Assembly (NCBI GenBank): GCA_002733495.1
Contig: NVVV01000002.1
Span: 60,861 to 124,860 of the forward strand
Source of the DNA: Robiginitomaculum sp.
GTDB lineage: Bacteria > Pseudomonadota > Alphaproteobacteria > Caulobacterales > Maricaulaceae
Length of the DNA: 64,000 nt
Direction: 5' to 3'
Positions 5,153 through 16,541 of the stretch are shown in pieces. The first letter of the stretch is position 1; every line of letters begins with the position of its first letter. Made by a program: the position numbers and the translations under genes. The notes beneath the pieces were generated by a model. It was not told the origin of the DNA, made no database searches, and saw only the letters and a program-made list of their open reading frames with translations.

Positions 5153-5599
5153 ATGGCCAGATACCATTGGCGTAACACCTTAATTGCTGTTGCCTTGAGC
5201 TTTCTTGCTGGCTTGGCAGGCATTTGGGTGGGTCTGAACAGCCTGTCAGATGGCGGATCGAATACGGTTAACCTGCATGAGAGAATTCATCACGAATTTA
5301 TTTTGAACGCGTCGCAAAAAACCGCCTTACATGCTCTTGAAGGGCGATACGCTTCCAGTCAGAAACAATATATTAAGGACCTGAAGGCCGCTAATTTTGA
5401 ATTGGCCGCAGCGATCAAGGCCCATCATACGCTATCGCCCGAAGTGGTGCTGGCCGAACAGGAGTATCTGAAAGTTCTTGGGGCCTTTCAAACTGAAACT
5501 CTGCGTCATATTTTTGCTATGCGAGCCATTCTTTCACATGTGCAAGCGCAAAAGTTCGATGATATTGTGTTGCGATCACTCCATGACATCACCGAATAA
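5153..5599 (+). CDS. cnrX: CnrX-like periplasmic metal sensor
   Basis: 148 aa, N-terminal TM; H42, H46, E63, H119 and M123 present at the CnrX ligand positions. Confidence 0.8.
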   Translation: MARYHWRNTLIAVALSFLAGLAGIWVGLNSLSDGGSNTVNLHERIHHEFILNASQKTALHALEGRYASSQKQYIKDLKAANFELAAAIKAHHTLSPEVVLAEQEYLKVLGAFQTETLRHIFAMRAILSHVQAQKFDDIVLRSLHDITE

Positions 5600-6167
5600 T
5601 CAAGCCTTTGATGATCAAGTCGACAAGGATTTGATAGCCAGTGCTCTGGCCGGTAATGACCAAGCCTTTACGACGATCATGCGTCGCTACAAGGATAATT
5701 TGTTTCGCTTTGCCTTGCGCCATCTGGATGATTCCGATGATGCCGAAGATGCCGTTCAGGACGCCTTTGTGGCGGCCTATAACAATCTGCACCGCTATAA
5801 ACCTCAATACCGACTGTCCACCTGGCTGTTTCAGATCACCCTGAACAAGTGCCGTGACATCGGGCGCAAACGAAAAACCCGCGCCTTCTTGCAACGCCTG
5901 ACCCCTGGTATTGAAAACACTGTGGCTGGCAGTGATGCCCTTTATAACCCGGAAACCCTCAGCCAGTCGCGCACGGGTGTAGAGCGGCTGAGAGCAGAAA
6001 TAGCGCACCTGCCAAAAGGTGTGAAGACGGCCTTTATCTTGTGTGTTCTGGAAGAGAAGTCACATAAGGATGCCGGGCAAATTCTTAACCTCAGTCCCAA
6101 GGCTGTGGAATTGCGTGTCTATCGGGCGCGCCGACACCTGAAAATGATTGCTAACTCTGATCTGTAA
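5583..6167 (+). CDS. ECF RNA polymerase sigma factor, CnrH-like
   Basis: Sigma70 region 2 (DDAEDAVQDAFVAAYNNLHRYKPQYRLSTWLFQITLNKCRD) and region 4; overlaps the end of the sensor gene. Confidence 0.85.
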   Translation: MTSPNNQAFDDQVDKDLIASALAGNDQAFTTIMRRYKDNLFRFALRHLDDSDDAEDAVQDAFVAAYNNLHRYKPQYRLSTWLFQITLNKCRDIGRKRKTRAFLQRLTPGIENTVAGSDALYNPETLSQSRTGVERLRAEIAHLPKGVKTAFILCVLEEKSHKDAGQILNLSPKAVELRVYRARRHLKMIANSDL

Positions 6168-9254: not shown

Positions 9255-9842
9255 TTAATGTGCGTGCTGCTCGCTCTGCGCATCTGCCTTGGCTGGAGTA
9301 TCATGTTTGGTCTTGTGCATTTTGTTGTGCATCATTTTGTGGCAAGTCTTTTGCTGATCACTCATGCCGTCTCCAGATTTCATTTTTTCTTTCATGGCCG
9401 CCATGTCCATGTCGCCGGACTTCATTTTTTCATGCATTTTGGCCATCATGGCTTTGCACTCTTGTGGCATGGCTTTCATCTTGTCTGAATGCTCAGGCAT
9501 CATGGCTTTGTGTTTGTTATGAGAGCCAGTGTTTGCCTTGTGCATTTTGTTGTGCATCATTTTGTGGCAAGTCTTTTGCTGGTCACTCATGCCGTCTCCA
9601 GATTTCATTTTTTCCTTCATGGCCGCCATGTCCATGTCGCCGGACTTCATTTTTTCATGCATTTTGGCCATCATGGCTTTGCATTTTTGCGCCATGTCAT
9701 TGTTATGTCCGCTTTGCGGCATGGTTTTGGTCTGGGTGTCTGCCGGGGCGGAAGCCGTGGGCTTTACCTGAGATGTGGCACAGGCGCTTAAGGCAAGAAT
9801 ACCTGCACCTAAAACGGCATTGCGCATAATTATGGTGATCAT
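9255..9842 (-). CDS. Met/His/Cys/Lys-rich lipoprotein with internal duplication, probable metal-binding protein
   Basis: Lipobox-like ILALSACATS; two copies of CKAMMAKMHEKMKSGDMDMAAMKEKMKSGDGMSDQQKTCHKMMHNKMHK. Confidence 0.7.
   Translation of the reverse strand: MITIIMRNAVLGAGILALSACATSQVKPTASAPADTQTKTMPQSGHNNDMAQKCKAMMAKMHEKMKSGDMDMAAMKEKMKSGDGMSDQQKTCHKMMHNKMHKANTGSHNKHKAMMPEHSDKMKAMPQECKAMMAKMHEKMKSGDMDMAAMKEKMKSGDGMSDQQKTCHKMMHNKMHKTKHDTPAKADAQSEQHAH
9312..9690. repeat. Direct duplication of about 150 bp, offset 225 bp, inside the Met-rich lipoprotein gene
   Basis: Near-identical copies starting at 9312 and 9537. Confidence 0.85.
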
Positions 9843-9970: not shown

Positions 9971-12094
9971 TTACCGGTCGTTACTGCGCACGTGACCTTT
10001 AGGGAAGAGGTCTAATACCATGCCACGATTACTATCAGCGGTCATCGCCATGCCCTGGATCGGGTTAACAGTGGAGCTACGGTTATCATCTTCAACCCGC
10101 AGCGTAGCTTGGCCGCTATAGCTGCCAGCAGAGGCACAGTTTTGCAGTGAAACTGTCACTGAGTAGAGGTTTGCACTGGCGCCGGAAGAGGTAAAGTCAC
10201 CGGAAACATTACATACCTGCGCAGAGCCAGGGAATGCATACGTTCCGCTGAAAGTGCCGGCGCTGGAAACCGTCAAGTCACCAATGTCTGTATTCCCATC
10301 GTAGAAGTCGAAGCTCCCACCAAGGTCGGCAATAACGGTAGAGCGGTCATAATCTCTGGAGAAGGCTGCCCGCAGAGAGCCAGTTCCGATAGAGGCCGTC
10401 GTGGATCCAGTGGAAGGGACATACGTACCCGTCAGAGAGCTTTTTGCATCCCAGTTCCCACCAAGTTGGTAAGCAACGCCGCCAACCGTGTTGGAAAGGT
10501 CAAGAACCTTTGCGTTGGCAGTCCAACCGCCGGAACCATCGGTGCTGATCGTTCCCGCAAACAGCGTAGCCGAGGCAGCCCGGTTTTCTGAATTATTGCC
10601 ATCATCATCATTGTCGTTGTCGCCAGAGCCGTTACCGTCTCCATCGCCATCGTTATCGCCGGAACCGTTCCCGTTATCGCCAGAGCCGTTGCCGTCTCCA
10701 TCGCCATCGTTGTCGCCAGAGCCGTCTCCGTCTCCATCGTTATCGCCGGAACCGTTGCCGTTGTCACCAGAGCCGTTGCCGTCTCCATCGCCATCGTTGT
10801 CGCCAGAGCCGTCTCCGTCTCCATCGTTATCGCCGGAACCGTTGCCGTTGTCACCAGAACCATCCCCATTATCGCCGGAACCATTTCCGTTGTCACCGGA
10901 ACCATTGTCGTCGTTACTGTCATTGCCGTCATTGTTGCTATCACCATTGCCGTTATGGTTGTCTGAGCTGCCATTATCGCCGCTGGCATCACCATTGTTA
11001 TTGTTACCGGCATTATTGTTGTCGCCTTCGCCACCACCATCATGATTGCCATTGCCATCGCTATAGATGATGGCATTCAGGGCACCGGCGGCAGAGATAA
11101 ACAGCAAGCCTTCGTTATAACCGCCATTGGTGCTGTTAAAACGTGCTTCCCAAATCCCTTCGGGTAATGAAGACGTTTGGCCGTCAGAACTAGCAGGCGC
11201 AGGTGCTGTTAACGCCATGCCAGTAGCACCACGGCCTTCGCCGCGCTCATCACTTAGAGGGGCGGATTCTTCGTAAAACCGCAAATATACGCGGGAAAGG
11301 TCTGGAAATTCCGGGATGCCAGCTTCTGGATCCGCATTGGCAAATACCGTATAGGTTTTTAGTGTAGCGCCAACCTTGGTGTGGATAAAGGGGGCTGGAT
11401 CGGACAAGCATGCCCCCGTCGTCGGTTCGGTTTCGCAAACAAACAAGCTGGCCGGAAGGGCAACATTGCCGGTATCTGGCATGGCAATAAGGTCTGCTTC
11501 TTCGGCCTTACCATTCGTGCCTGCACCAATATTCACAGCTGAAATTGCCATGGCCTCTGCGCCACCCGAGGTTAGGATACGGACATAACCATCAACAGAT
11601 CGGGATTGGGCATTCGTCACCACGTCTGGGGAAGGTGTTGCAGAAGCAGAAAAGGAAAGGGCGTTAACGCCATCAACCACGGGGGCTTCTACTTTAGCAC
11701 CTGCATCATCGGAACAGGCATAGGTCAGGCGCAGTGTACCAGCAGGAACTGGCGCACTTGCGGTAAAGGATAAGACAAAAGCCTGGGCAGCGCCGGGCGC
11801 AATATCAACAGGAGTATCTGTAGCAGCCGCTGCTGTCGCATTATCAGCTTCCATTGCCCGATAAGAAATATTAATGGGCTGACCGGCCTTGCGCAGGCTA
11901 ATACTGCATGAGCGGGCAATGCTGTCACCACTATTGATCATGCTGGCAAAAATCGTTACCGGCCTGTTGATTGACGTTGAGCGGCTAGAAGGCAAGACCG
12001 CAGCTTGCAATGCGGGACCAGCAAGTGCCGAAGTAGCTGCACCCATTACGGACAGGGAAGCTGCGCTTAACAGTAAAACTTTGCGTGAAATCAT
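9971..12094 (-). CDS. Secreted/surface protein with (S)GDN(G/D) low-complexity region
   Basis: Signal peptide MISRKVLLLSAASLSVMGAATSALAG; about 130 aa of Gly/Asp/Asn/Ser repeat; flanking unrecognised domains. Confidence 0.75.
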   Translation of the reverse strand: MISRKVLLLSAASLSVMGAATSALAGPALQAAVLPSSRSTSINRPVTIFASMINSGDSIARSCSISLRKAGQPINISYRAMEADNATAAAATDTPVDIAPGAAQAFVLSFTASAPVPAGTLRLTYACSDDAGAKVEAPVVDGVNALSFSASATPSPDVVTNAQSRSVDGYVRILTSGGAEAMAISAVNIGAGTNGKAEEADLIAMPDTGNVALPASLFVCETEPTTGACLSDPAPFIHTKVGATLKTYTVFANADPEAGIPEFPDLSRVYLRFYEESAPLSDERGEGRGATGMALTAPAPASSDGQTSSLPEGIWEARFNSTNGGYNEGLLFISAAGALNAIIYSDGNGNHDGGGEGDNNNAGNNNNGDASGDNGSSDNHNGNGDSNNDGNDSNDDNGSGDNGNGSGDNGDGSGDNGNGSGDNDGDGDGSGDNDGDGDGNGSGDNGNGSGDNDGDGDGSGDNDGDGDGNGSGDNGNGSGDNDGDGDGNGSGDNDNDDDGNNSENRAASATLFAGTISTDGSGGWTANAKVLDLSNTVGGVAYQLGGNWDAKSSLTGTYVPSTGSTTASIGTGSLRAAFSRDYDRSTVIADLGGSFDFYDGNTDIGDLTVSSAGTFSGTYAFPGSAQVCNVSGDFTSSGASANLYSVTVSLQNCASAGSYSGQATLRVEDDNRSSTVNPIQGMAMTADSNRGMVLDLFPKGHVRSNDR
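10610..10990. repeat. Low-complexity minisatellite with an 87-bp tandem unit
   Basis: CAGAGCCGTTGCCGTCTCCATCGCCATCGTTGTCGCC... at 10681 recurs at 10768 (offset 87 bp = 29 codons). Confidence 0.85.
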
Positions 12095-12140
12095 AATACT
12101 CTCCATTTATTCGCGTTTCGGCACCAAGCCGTTCAGTGCA

Positions 12141-12169
12141 TTGACGTCATGGTGGGGCAATAACCTCCA
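12141..12169 (-). promoter_or_regulatory. Putative ECF sigma promoter upstream of the Gly/Asp-repeat protein
   Basis: Minus strand TGGAGGTTATT-GCCC-CACCATGACGTCAA; same layout as 12926-12954. Confidence 0.6.
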
Positions 12170-12234
12170 GTCTCTGTGAGGTTTCTTGATATAAAGTGAT
12201 TTATGTGGTGTGAGATTAAATCAATAATTCAAGC

Positions 12235-12259
12235 AATTGTCTATAACTTATAGACAATT
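12235..12259. promoter_or_regulatory. 25-bp palindromic operator candidate
   Basis: AATTGTCTATAA-C-TTATAGACAATT, perfect 12-bp arms with 1-bp centre, in the divergent intergenic region. Confidence 0.6.
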
Positions 12260-12306
12260 ACGATTAGAAACCTGCACGGATTTTAATCCGCTGATAAAGA
12301 TAAGTT

Positions 12307-12882
12307 ATGGCGTATTCCTTCATTGCGAAGGACCTTATAATTGCTCATACTCGCCCAATGTTGAGTGACAATCTCAAAACGACTTATATGGCACAGCGTG
12401 CCAATCTATGCCGGTTTCTGGCTGCCCGTTTGCGTGATGATGCCATAGCAGAGGATTTGGTGCAGGAATTGTGGGTCAAGCTCAGCAAGGCCAACATCAC
12501 CGAAAAAATCGACAATCCGGTCAGTTACCTCTTTACAATGGCAGGTCGTCTGTCTCTGGATCACATTCGCCAGCGTCAACGCCGCGTACGCCGCGATGAA
12601 AAATGGACGGACGAAAGTACAGAAACGGTTGGCGGCTTTGCCACCAGTGCCGAGGATGATGGGGAAACCAGGCTGATCCGGGCGGAACGCATTGCTAAGG
12701 TTCGTGACGCCATCGACACACTGCCTCCCAAGGCCAAAAAGGCATTTCAACTTCACCGCATGCAGGGGATGTCCCACAAGGAAGTGGCGGCGGTGCTTGG
12801 TATTTCCGTTAGCACGGTGGAAAAACATATCATCCGCGCCATGCGTGAATTGACACAAATTTTGCGTGAAGCAGGCCCCTAA
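12307..12882 (+). CDS. FecI-type ECF RNA polymerase sigma factor
   Basis: AEDLVQELWVKLSKANITEKIDNPVSYLFTMAGRLSLDHIRQRQRR; region 4 MSHKEVAAVLGISVSTVEKHIIRAMREL; followed by fecR. Confidence 0.88.
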   Translation: MAYSFIAKDLIIAHTRPMLSDNLKTTYMAQRANLCRFLAARLRDDAIAEDLVQELWVKLSKANITEKIDNPVSYLFTMAGRLSLDHIRQRQRRVRRDEKWTDESTETVGGFATSAEDDGETRLIRAERIAKVRDAIDTLPPKAKKAFQLHRMQGMSHKEVAAVLGISVSTVEKHIIRAMRELTQILREAGP

Positions 12883-12925
12883 ATATAAGTAGCAAAAAAA
12901 GAATGCATTTTTTTTGAAGAAAAAG

Positions 12926-12954
12926 TGGAGGTTATTTTTACACGGTGACGTCAA
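12926..12954 (+). promoter_or_regulatory. Putative ECF sigma promoter upstream of fecR
   Basis: TGGAGGTTATT-TTTA-CACGGTGACGTCAA; same layout as the site at 12141-12169. Confidence 0.6.
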
Positions 12955-12980: not shown

Positions 12981-14042
12981 ATGGAAAACAAGTCGCATAA
13001 CAGCGCCCAGCGCGCACTGGAAGAAAAAGCCCTGCACTGGCATGTGCGGCTGCACGGCGGCGATGCCACCGAAGCAGACTGGCTGGATTTTACCAGTTGG
13101 CTGGAAGCCAAGCCGGCACACAATGACGCTTATGACGTTGTGGCTCTGGCCTGGGATGACGCTGATGACTTGCCCTCTGCTCTCCACATCGAGACGAGCA
13201 ATGAAAACGTACAACAAGGCAATGTAGTTGCCTTCCCCATGGATCGCCTGCGCAAAGCTGTGGCCGCCAAGCCCTGGGCATTTGGTGGCGGCTTTGGGGC
13301 CGCCATTGCCGCGACACTGATGCTGTTGGTCGCCCCTGTCTATATGGCACAAAATGATGCCATGGACCCAACAATTTATGCCACAGCGGTTGGCGAACAG
13401 CGCATAATCACCCTAGCCGATGGTAGTACCGTCACCCTGAATACAGATACGTCTATTTCTGTGATCATGGACAAGACCTCACGGCGCATTGATCTGCAAA
13501 AAGGCGAAGCCTATTTTGATGTCAGTCACGAAAAGGCGCGTTCTTTTACCGTGGCCGCCAATTCTCTGCGCATTACGGACATTGGCACCCGCTTTGACGT
13601 CCGTCTTAATGCAGAAAGCACATTGGTATCTGTCACAGACGGCATTGTTGAAGTTGAACCTATGGCGCAAGCTAATGGCGGTGCGAAAAATAAAAAACCG
13701 GCGGTGCGCCTTATAGAAGGACAACAGGCGATACATTTTTCAAACAGTGCAGAAATTACAGTGCAACCCTTTGATTCAACACAGGTCACAACGTGGAAAC
13801 AGGGCTATCTGGTGTTTAAAAATAATGATCTTGGTCATGTTGTATCGGAACTGAACCGCTATTTCTCGACCCCGCTAAGCTTGGCGCAAACGGACATGGC
13901 TAGCCTGCATTTTTCAGGTATATTGCAAATCACAGATCAGGATCGCGCTTTACGTGATCTAACGGCGCTGTTATCTTTAACGGTCGCCAAAACTGATACA
14001 GGAATAACCTTGCATCAGGATGATAGGGTTCATAGCGAATAA
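12981..14042 (+). CDS. FecR-family anti-sigma/transducer
   Basis: DUF4880-like N-terminus (WHVRLHGGDATEADWLDFTSWLEAKPAHNDAYD); FecR core YATAVGEQRIITLADGSTVTLNTDTSI. Confidence 0.9.
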   Translation: MENKSHNSAQRALEEKALHWHVRLHGGDATEADWLDFTSWLEAKPAHNDAYDVVALAWDDADDLPSALHIETSNENVQQGNVVAFPMDRLRKAVAAKPWAFGGGFGAAIAATLMLLVAPVYMAQNDAMDPTIYATAVGEQRIITLADGSTVTLNTDTSISVIMDKTSRRIDLQKGEAYFDVSHEKARSFTVAANSLRITDIGTRFDVRLNAESTLVSVTDGIVEVEPMAQANGGAKNKKPAVRLIEGQQAIHFSNSAEITVQPFDSTQVTTWKQGYLVFKNNDLGHVVSELNRYFSTPLSLAQTDMASLHFSGILQITDQDRALRDLTALLSLTVAKTDTGITLHQDDRVHSE

Positions 14043-14066: not shown

Positions 14067-16541
14067 ATGGCTTGTCACTCCCTTTTTAAATCTGTCTGTT
14101 CTTTAACAGCCGCCGCCTTTGTGTGCTTTGCCCCGGCTAGTTACGCACAGGCTTCCAAAACTTATATTATTGATTTACCGCCGCTCAGTCTGGACCGCGC
14201 TCTCACTCGGCTTGCAAGGCAAACGCAAATTTCTGTGAACTTTTCGACATTTGATCTAAAGCGCACCAAACGTCCGGCCATTTTGGGGCTATATACGCTG
14301 GACAACGCCCTGCGGGCTATTCTTGAAAATACAGATTATTCTTTTCAGAAACTTGGGACCGGAGCCTATCGAATTATCCTGGCACCCCCGCCCGTGAAGA
14401 ATTCGTCCAGGCCCACACTGGACTTGCAAAGCACCGTAGCGCCCATCACCAAAGACATTATCATTGTGCATGCCACCAAACGTGCCGGTGTGGCGGCGCG
14501 TCTGCCCATGAGCCTCAGCATTACGGACAGTGCGCAGCTGGAAACCCTGCAGATTACAGATACCAACGCGCTGGCTTTGCATACGGCCGGTATGTCATCA
14601 ACCAATCTTGGCCCCAGCCGTAATAAAATCTTCATTCGCGGTATTTCGGACGGCAGCTTTACTGGGCGACAACAGGCCACAATCGGGGCCTATCTTGATA
14701 ATATCCGCCTCAATTATAATGAGCCGGACCCCTATCTGCAGCTGGATGATGTGGATCATGTTGAAGTGCTACGCGGGCCACAAGGCACTCTTTATGGCGC
14801 AGGGTCGCTCGGCGGGCTTTACCGGGTTATTACCAATAACCCGGACACGGAAAAATATACGGCCAGCATAAACCTTGATACGTCTCTAACCCGCAATGGC
14901 GGTCAAAATGGCCGCATCAGCTCCACCATCAATATGCCTTTGGTCAAGGGCAAGCTGGCCCTGCGTGTCACCGGCTATCTGGATCATGCGGCCGGCTATA
15001 TCGATGATGTGCGGCTTGGCTTGAAAAACGTAAACACCACCAATGTGTTTGGCACGCGTGCCCGTATTTTATGGAATATTGATGATCGCTGGAGTGTTAA
15101 TGCAGGCCTGAATTTTCAGGATGTCATCGCAAGTGACACACAATATTCCCTCGACTCACTTGGCCCCTACAAACGTGCAAACTATGTGCGCGAGCCGCAT
15201 GAAGATGACTATATCAATCCATATAGTGAAATCAGGGGCCGTTTTGGCTGGGGCGAATTTGTATCCTCAACCGCTTTTATCAATCGCTCTATTGGTGATG
15301 AGATCGATGCCTCGCTTGGTGTTCCCGTGCTAACGGCGCTTCCCATAACGCCCAGTACATTTGACCAGGGGCGCAAAATCAACATGATTACCAATGAAAC
15401 CCGGCTGGTGTCGCGCTCTGGTGGCCCCATAGACTGGCTGGTTGGTGGTCTTATTTCTCAGCGCAAAGAGAACTTTTCTTCCACACTGACCATTCCCGGC
15501 TCAGCCTCTGTACTACCCGGCGGGGCCCGCAATGGCGATATTGCCTTTAGTGAAAAGCGTCATGAACGCACCAATGAACTGGCGGCCTTTGGGGAAGTGA
15601 TCTGGCATCTGCCCTTCGAGATTGATCTGACGGGCGGCCTGCGCTGGTTTTATTCAGACGAACAGACGCGGGCTGACATTGGTGGTGCCCTTGGCACCGC
15701 CGCCGTTATGCGTAATGGCAATAGCCGCGATACCGGCTTTACGCCCAAAGCGGTGATTAGCTGGCAAGCCAATGAAAACGTTTTTCTTTATGCACAGCGC
15801 GCACAGGGATTTCGGGTTGGCGGGATCAATCTGAATAGCCCGGACAGTGTTTTTTTTGAAGATGGCAGCGGTGATATTGATGAGGAAAATGACCAAACGT
15901 TTGAACCAGACAAGCTGACCATGTATGAGCTTGGTGGAAAATTCGCCCTCTTTGATGAGCGCGTTCAGTTGCATATTTCGGCCTTTACCTTCAAATGGAA
16001 TGACATCCAGACCGATCAGATTTTACCAAATGGCTTTAGTGTCATTCTGAATGCCGGTTATGCCCGAAGCCAGGGCGTCGATGTAGACATCTTGTTTTCG
16101 CCTTTCGAGGGCCTGACCTTTGATGCCAATTTGTCTTTTAATGACCCGGACTTGGTGATTGTAAACCCATTTCTGGGCTCTCAGGTCAACGACCATTTGC
16201 CCGGTATTGCCACCCTGGCCGGCGGCATACTTGCAGAATACAGTTGGGCCGCAGGGATTGAGCGCCGTTGGGTACTTAGCGCAGATTTTTCCCATAATGG
16301 CCGCTCTCAACTGACCTTTGCGCGCACCGACAACCGCGATGCCCAGGCGACCAACATGCTGAATTTTCGCATGGCGCTGGAAAGCCCGTCACACTGGAAA
16401 ATTGGCGCCTATGTCCGTAATATCCTCAATGAAAAGGCCAATACTTTTGCCTTCGGAAATCCGTTCAGCTTCCGCCAGGAGGTCCACCGCACCCCGCCTG
16501 TGCCCCTGACGGTCGGTATATCCTTCAAGCGACAATTATAA
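14067..16541 (+). CDS. TonB-dependent receptor with N-terminal STN signalling domain
   Basis: STN segment IDLPPLSLDRALTRLARQTQISVNFS; plug with VEVLRGPQGTLYGAGSLGGLYRVITNNP; C-terminal barrel ending VGISFKRQL. Confidence 0.92.
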   Translation: MACHSLFKSVCSLTAAAFVCFAPASYAQASKTYIIDLPPLSLDRALTRLARQTQISVNFSTFDLKRTKRPAILGLYTLDNALRAILENTDYSFQKLGTGAYRIILAPPPVKNSSRPTLDLQSTVAPITKDIIIVHATKRAGVAARLPMSLSITDSAQLETLQITDTNALALHTAGMSSTNLGPSRNKIFIRGISDGSFTGRQQATIGAYLDNIRLNYNEPDPYLQLDDVDHVEVLRGPQGTLYGAGSLGGLYRVITNNPDTEKYTASINLDTSLTRNGGQNGRISSTINMPLVKGKLALRVTGYLDHAAGYIDDVRLGLKNVNTTNVFGTRARILWNIDDRWSVNAGLNFQDVIASDTQYSLDSLGPYKRANYVREPHEDDYINPYSEIRGRFGWGEFVSSTAFINRSIGDEIDASLGVPVLTALPITPSTFDQGRKINMITNETRLVSRSGGPIDWLVGGLISQRKENFSSTLTIPGSASVLPGGARNGDIAFSEKRHERTNELAAFGEVIWHLPFEIDLTGGLRWFYSDEQTRADIGGALGTAAVMRNGNSRDTGFTPKAVISWQANENVFLYAQRAQGFRVGGINLNSPDSVFFEDGSGDIDEENDQTFEPDKLTMYELGGKFALFDERVQLHISAFTFKWNDIQTDQILPNGFSVILNAGYARSQGVDVDILFSPFEGLTFDANLSFNDPDLVIVNPFLGSQVNDHLPGIATLAGGILAEYSWAAGIERRWVLSADFSHNGRSQLTFARTDNRDAQATNMLNFRMALESPSHWKIGAYVRNILNEKANTFAFGNPFSFRQEVHRTPPVPLTVGISFKRQL

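What the first reader, a model, noticed from the sequence alone, without database searches (positions are those of the whole stretch)
12141..12954. Two matched ECF-type promoters place the Gly/Asp-repeat protein in the FecI-like sigma regulon
A 29-bp site upstream of fecR (TGGAGGTTATT-N4-CACNNTGACGTCAA, 12926-12954) recurs with identical spacing on the opposite strand (12141-12169), 47 bp upstream of the repeat-protein start. The only differences are the 4-nt spacer and two bases. GGAGGTT as -35 and CGTC as -10 is an ECF-like arrangement. This suggests a surface-signalling circuit in which the sigma factor drives both fecR/TonB receptor and the repeat protein, making the repeat protein a candidate partner or substrate-capture component of the receptor.
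Basis: partly seen in the sequence, partly recalled or inferred. Interest (0 to 1): 0.75.

Follow-up and report, generated by a model that had tools for sequence, protein, structure and literature searches.

The report
Surface-signalling sigma regulon with Asp-repeat protein
In a marine bacterium (Robiginitomaculum) two matching DNA switches beside a receptor-controlled sigma factor are very probably real promoters, and the same switch also sits in front of a small-molecule synthesis operon and another exported protein, which outlines a receptor circuit that I could not find described.

Summary
In detail: the 29-bp site occurs at both stated places and nowhere else in the 3.19-Mb assembly. Relatives show that the conserved core is TGGAGG-N16-[A/G]CGTC with invariant spacing. 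It lies upstream of fecR in every genus relative examined that has a close copy of this sigma, and upstream of the repeat-protein gene in 12 of 12, even where that gene has moved. It is absent upstream of the sigma gene, the TonB receptor and unlinked repeat-protein paralogs. A weight matrix built only from fecR sites recovers the repeat-gene sites, plus sites before a T_hemolysin / acyl-ligase–haem-oxygenase-like operon and before a small exported protein (S177). In this genome a relaxed pattern has five hits; four are these units. All 11 sigma-linked repeat proteins carry Asp-rich repeats; none of 41 unlinked paralogs does. Co-regulation is therefore well supported, without experiment. That the repeat protein captures substrate for the receptor is not shown. 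Best reading: FecI/FecR/FecA-type surface signalling controlling a receptor, a biosynthetic operon and secreted acidic proteins; a new variant of a known kind.

The parts
12926..12954 (+). Predicted ECF promoter of fecR-receptor; core TGGAGG-N16-ACGTC at 12926-12952
12141..12169 (-). Predicted ECF promoter of the repeat protein; core at 12143-12169
12095..12140 (-). Leader of the repeat-protein gene with conserved TGAACGGCTTGGTGCCG (small CGGC-loop-GCCG stem)
9971..12094 (-). Repeat protein: signal peptide, two Ig-like domains (N part), C-terminal beta domain interrupted by an Asp/Gly/Asn-rich repeat
   Evidence: no Pfam or NCBIfam match
12358..12882 (+). FecI-like ECF sigma factor; likely start at 12358 rather than 12307 (homologs start there)
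12336..12341 (+). TATAAT conserved upstream of the likely sigma start; possible housekeeping -10
   Evidence: no full sigma-70 promoter by the consensus scan
12235..12259 (.). Near-perfect palindrome AATTGTCTATAACTTATAGACAATT between the divergent genes; possible repressor site for the sigma gene
12981..14042 (+). FecR-like sigma regulator (DUF4880, transmembrane segment, FecR domain)
14067..16541 (+). TonB-dependent receptor with plug, barrel and a weak N-terminal STN (signalling) match

Best explanation
The two sites are paired promoters read by the FecI-like ECF sigma factor encoded between them. Ligand at the TonB-dependent receptor is signalled through its STN-like domain to FecR, which releases or activates the sigma. 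The sigma then transcribes fecR-receptor, the divergent repeat protein and, elsewhere in the genome, a T_hemolysin plus acyl-ligase/haem-oxygenase-like operon and the small exported protein S177. The sigma gene has no such site itself and is probably made from another promoter. Shown here: the sites, their conservation and scarcity, held-out prediction of targets, and co-variation with the sigma. Inferred from FecI/FecR/FecA and Has systems: the signal path. Inferred and weaker: the operon makes an acylated small molecule that may be the receptor's ligand or a metal carrier, and the repeat protein and S177 are acidic, metal-binding secreted partners.
For: Exact pair, unique in the genome. Footprints before fecR in 13 genus loci and before the repeat gene in 12, including G010 and G004 where the gene order differs. 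A matrix from fecR sites alone recovers repeat-gene, operon, second fecR and S177 sites; none above -2 before sigma, receptor or 17 unlinked paralogs. Relaxed pattern in the own genome: 5 hits, 4 of them regulon units. S177 has the site in 8 of 8 genomes. The T_hemolysin operon is adjacent to the sigma in G001, G004, G009, G010, G064, G102, G219 and two Sphingomonas records, with matched sites in G064 and G102 (sequence). The -35 base follows the sigma recognition helix, TGGAGG/STVEKH versus TGGGGG/GTVGKH, with the same spacing. Four genus genomes without the sigma lack consensus-like sites, the ligase and S177. Has precedent: the sigma drives the anti-sigma gene, not its own gene (PMC9249621).
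Against: No transcript or binding data. Some sites are weak (G013 repeat gene; operon in G004 and G010). The helix/base co-variation is probably one change on the tree. G014 and G017, 99% complete, lack the operon but keep the receptor and repeat protein, so the operon's product need not be the ligand. The window's genome is a draft assembly (88% complete, 5% contamination), and two of the four targets lie on other contigs.
Confidence: 0.87

Rival explanations
1. The motif is the operator of another transcription factor; the sigma is only a neighbour or a co-target.
For: The motif is GC-rich and its distance to the start codon varies from 25 to about 65 bases. No binding data exist.
Against: Fixed two-block spacing with a CGTC -10, no site before the sigma gene, sites tracking sigma presence and the -35 base tracking the sigma helix all favour a sigma.
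Confidence: 0.07
2. The repeat protein is in the regulon but has nothing to do with uptake: it is a surface or biofilm matrix protein (two Ig-like domains, RbmA-like) made in the same condition.
For: N domain predicted as tandem Ig-like sandwiches, best PDB match RbmA. It belongs to a large paralog family not linked to sigmas. No ligand-binding fold was established.
Against: Sigma-linked copies alone carry Asp-rich repeats, 11 of 11 against 0 of 41, even when the rest of the protein differs.
Confidence: 0.45
3. The repeat protein is a hemophore-like capture partner: its acidic repeats hold metal or a metal complex and hand it to the receptor.
For: Co-regulation with the receptor, Asp repeats specific to sigma-linked copies, and a similar Asp/Asn tail on S177 that varies with the repeat between genomes. 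HasA in the Has regulon is a precedent.
Against: No binding data; no similarity to HasA found; repeat length and composition vary widely.
Confidence: 0.3
4. The pair of sites is a recent local duplication or chance, without function.
For: The two window copies share ATT and CAC beyond the general consensus.
Against: Each site is conserved in its own position across many genomes, with its own downstream leader.
Confidence: 0.01

Closest known systems
FecI-FecR-FecA ferric citrate signalling (E. coli)
   Same: Sigma, FecR-type regulator with DUF4880 and FecR domains, TonB receptor with an STN-like N part; no site of the sigma's own motif before the sigma gene
   Different: Here the motif lies before fecR and the receptor follows it without a site of its own; the regulon includes a biosynthetic operon and secreted proteins; the sigma is far below the FecI equivalog cut-off (61 against 260 bits)
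HasI-HasS-HasR-HasA haem system (Serratia; PMC9249621)
   Same: The sigma drives the anti-sigma gene but not itself; a secreted protein is controlled together with the receptor
   Different: The repeat protein is an Ig-like, Asp-repeat protein with no similarity to solved proteins; no haem link shown
Pyoverdine FpvA-FpvR-PvdS/FpvI circuit (Pseudomonas; from general knowledge)
   Same: A receptor-sigma circuit that controls both receptor and biosynthesis genes
   Different: No NRPS here; a T_hemolysin protein and an acyl-ligase fused to a haem-oxygenase-like domain instead
RbmA biofilm matrix protein (Vibrio cholerae)
   Same: Tandem Ig/FnIII-like exported domains; best PDB match of the N part
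   Different: TM-score about 0.3, 10% identity; no evidence of common descent

Membership tests
FecI-FecR-FecA-type cell-surface signalling | ECF sigma, adjacent FecR-domain regulator and TonB receptor | tested here: met
   Pfam/NCBIfam hits; gene order conserved in relatives
FecI-FecR-FecA-type cell-surface signalling | Receptor carries an N-terminal STN signalling domain | tested here: inconclusive
   STN E=5e-4, below Pfam's cut-off (20.2 against 28.4 bits); NCBIfam FecA model aligns to residues 13-106
FecI-FecR-FecA-type cell-surface signalling | Sigma-specific promoter before the controlled genes | tested here: met
   Conserved TGGAGG-N16-RCGTC; activity itself not testable here
FecI-FecR-FecA-type cell-surface signalling | Ligand at the receptor induces transcription | not testable with these tools
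   Needs experiment
Hemophore (HasA) type partner | Similarity to HasA or a known haem-binding fold | tested here: not met
   No PDB sequence relatives; N part Ig-like; C part of low confidence
Metallophore biosynthesis under receptor feedback (pyoverdine-like) | Biosynthetic operon under the same sigma motif | tested here: met
   Sites before the T_hemolysin operon in this and related genomes, weak in two
Metallophore biosynthesis under receptor feedback (pyoverdine-like) | The product binds metal and is the receptor's ligand | not testable with these tools
   Product unknown; operon absent in G014 and G017, which keep the receptor

The most novel reading that the evidence does not exclude
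A receptor-sigma circuit built around an undescribed small molecule: a T_hemolysin-family enzyme and an acyl-ligase fused to a haem-oxygenase-like domain make it, the TonB receptor senses and imports its metal complex, and co-regulated secreted proteins with Asp-rich repeats serve as an external ion reservoir or capture partner. Species that lack the operon use the compound made by others.
Probability: 0.22. Interest if true: 0.8.

Novelty: new variant of a known kind. Interest (0 to 1): 0.6.

Why it matters
It gives a testable regulon for an uncharacterised FecI-like group: a promoter with fixed spacing, a proposed base-to-helix specificity rule, and a defined gene set. It ties the T_hemolysin family, named after a haemolysin, to an acyl-ligase/haem-oxygenase-like fusion and to TonB receptors, which suggests a small-molecule role and a route to the product. 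The restriction of Asp-rich repeats to sigma-linked copies makes the role of such repeats in receptor-linked processes testable.

Tried and rejected
Chance or sigma-independent motif: rejected. Sites before the sigma gene or the receptor: none. All paralogs of the repeat protein in the regulon: rejected, 17 upstream regions without a site. A sigma-70 consensus promoter for the sigma gene: none by the scan, only a conserved TATAAT. Rfam element: none. Literature on a T_hemolysin plus haem-oxygenase-like pathway or its link to TonB signalling: nothing found in the open library; subscription papers are not held, so this absence is weak. PDB sequence relatives of the repeat protein and of T_hemolysin: none. 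The model of the C-terminal domain has low confidence (pLDDT 66), so its lipocalin/avidin-like matches (E about 0.1) are not used. The fifth relaxed hit in the genome, C63:7804, was set aside as chance because it scores poorly with the matrix and appears to lie within coding sequence (the reading as coding sequence is by eye).

Full report
WHAT IS THERE. The two 29-bp sites are exactly as described and are the only two in the 3.19-Mb genome. The window is G000:C55:60861-124860; its nearest named relatives are Robiginitomaculum metagenome-assembled genomes. Gene order: repeat protein on the minus strand; sigma, fecR and TonB receptor on the plus strand. Pfam and NCBIfam support sigma, FecR and receptor; the STN part of the receptor is a weak match; the repeat protein matches no family.

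FOOTPRINTS. Orthologs of the repeat protein (71-85% identical over the N part) occur in 8 other genomes of the genus. In 7 they lie beside the sigma-fecR-receptor genes; the eighth (G001) is on a 3-kb contig. Upstream alignments show TGGAGG-N16-RCGTC, or a close variant, before both fecR and the repeat gene. In G010 the repeat gene sits downstream of the receptor, and in G004 4.6 kb that includes the T_hemolysin operon intervenes, yet both keep the site. In G005, G013 and G014 the divergent repeat protein is only about 33% identical over the N part, but the promoter and leader are still recognisable (weak in G013).

HELD-OUT TEST. A matrix made from 13 fecR sites alone was applied to other upstream regions. 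For the repeat gene, 12 of 12 best hits fall at the expected place (scores 3.4 to 27). Upstream regions of sigma, receptor and 17 unlinked paralogs give nothing above -2. Among 1.54 million positions only 48 exceed 8, and most of these are the fecR sites themselves or regulon sites. The exceptions are listed; one of them (L070:4535, score 27) may be a further real target.

REGULON. A genus-wide pattern search exposed other recurrent sites, which were read. (a) An operon of a T_hemolysin protein (PF12261, E 3.5e-52) and an AMP-binding ligase fused to a Haem_oxygenas_2 domain (PF14518, E 4.4e-23); in this genome at C17:17484. (b) A 177-residue exported protein, S177, at C16:104828, with a site in all 8 genomes that have it. 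(c) A second fecR-receptor pair, divergent from operon (a), in G002, G006 and G012. In this genome the relaxed pattern GGAGGNT-N15-CGTC has 5 hits: fecR, repeat gene, (a), (b) and one apparent chance hit.

OLDER LINK. Operon (a) lies next to the sigma in G001, G004, G009 and G010, in another genus (G064), in two other families (G102, G219) and in two Sphingomonas records. Reading the intergenic sequence by eye, G064 has TGGAGG-TGCAACGTCTCATGCA-GCGTC before the operon beside TGGAGG-TGCAATAAAGGCCATG-CCGTC before fecR. G102 has TTGAGG-N16-TCGTC and TTGAGG-N16-GCGTC at the two places. This suggests that the operon is the older partner and the repeat protein an addition within the genus (inference).

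READER OF THE MOTIF. The recognition helix of sigma region 4 reads STVEKH in the 13 genus sigmas with TGGAGG and also in G064. It reads GTVGKH in 8 sigmas whose fecR site is TGGGGG. The spacing is identical throughout. This is probably one change on the tree, so it is supportive rather than repeated evidence. Genus members without a detected sigma (G007, G008, G011, G016) have no consensus-like site, no ligase and no S177; some of these assemblies are incomplete.

THE REPEAT PROTEIN. Its N part is predicted as two Ig-like sandwiches (pLDDT 88), nearest in the PDB to RbmA but with low TM-scores. In the orthologs the Asp/Gly/Asn repeat is inserted before the C-terminal beta domain's main part and differs strongly between species. 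Asp-rich repeats (at least 11 Asp in 40 residues) occur in 11 of 11 sigma-linked proteins and in 0 of 41 unlinked paralogs (maximum 9). The exact p is about 1.7e-11 if copies were independent, which they are not fully. S177 ends in a similar Asp/Asn tail; where the repeats carry Arg and His (G003, G017), so does the S177 tail. This fits ion binding but does not prove a function.

MECHANISM. By analogy with FecI/FecR/FecA and with Has, where the sigma drives the anti-sigma gene but not its own gene (PMC9249621), ligand at the receptor would release the sigma to express receptor, regulator, operon and the secreted acidic proteins. The direction of signalling, the ligand and the product are inferred. 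G014 and G017, nearly complete, lack the operon but keep the receptor and repeat protein, so the ligand is either taken from others or is not made by this operon.

VERDICT. Observation confirmed; regulatory reading well supported; substrate-capture role open. A new variant of cell-surface signalling, interesting mainly for the content of the regulon.

Noticed in passing
window 12235-12259: Palindrome AATTGTCTATAACTTATAGACAATT, unique in the genome, conserved with 2-3 changes at the same place in G002 and G006 (partly in G012); possible repressor site for the sigma gene.
   Followed up: partly
window 12095-12140: The leader of the repeat-protein gene is conserved well beyond the promoter, with a CGGC-loop-GCCG stem; traces remain in the distant G005/G013/G014 copies.
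   Followed up: partly
window 9255-9842 (-): Lipoprotein-like Met/His/Cys-rich protein with a duplicated block, next to a heavy-metal P-type ATPase; kept beside the repeat gene in G002, G006 and G012. The sigma locus lies within a metal-resistance region there.
   Followed up: partly
window 5153-6167 (+): A second ECF sigma factor directly after a Metal_resist-like (periplasmic, CnrX-like) protein.
   Followed up: no
genus-wide: The N part of the repeat protein is a large paralog family, often 5-15 or more copies per genome with open frames up to thousands of residues and no Pfam entry; apparently an undescribed exported Ig-like family with variable C-termini.
   Followed up: partly
L162:7607-7633 (G010): A further good site upstream of a PycTM-domain protein, seen only in this genome.
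   Followed up: no
L070:4535-4561 (G012): High-scoring site (27) about 110 bp upstream of a small exported protein; possible further target.
   Followed up: no
L110:3853-3879 (G064): A site upstream of a flavin monooxygenase-like gene beside the T_hemolysin operon in another genus; a possible further biosynthetic step.
   Followed up: no
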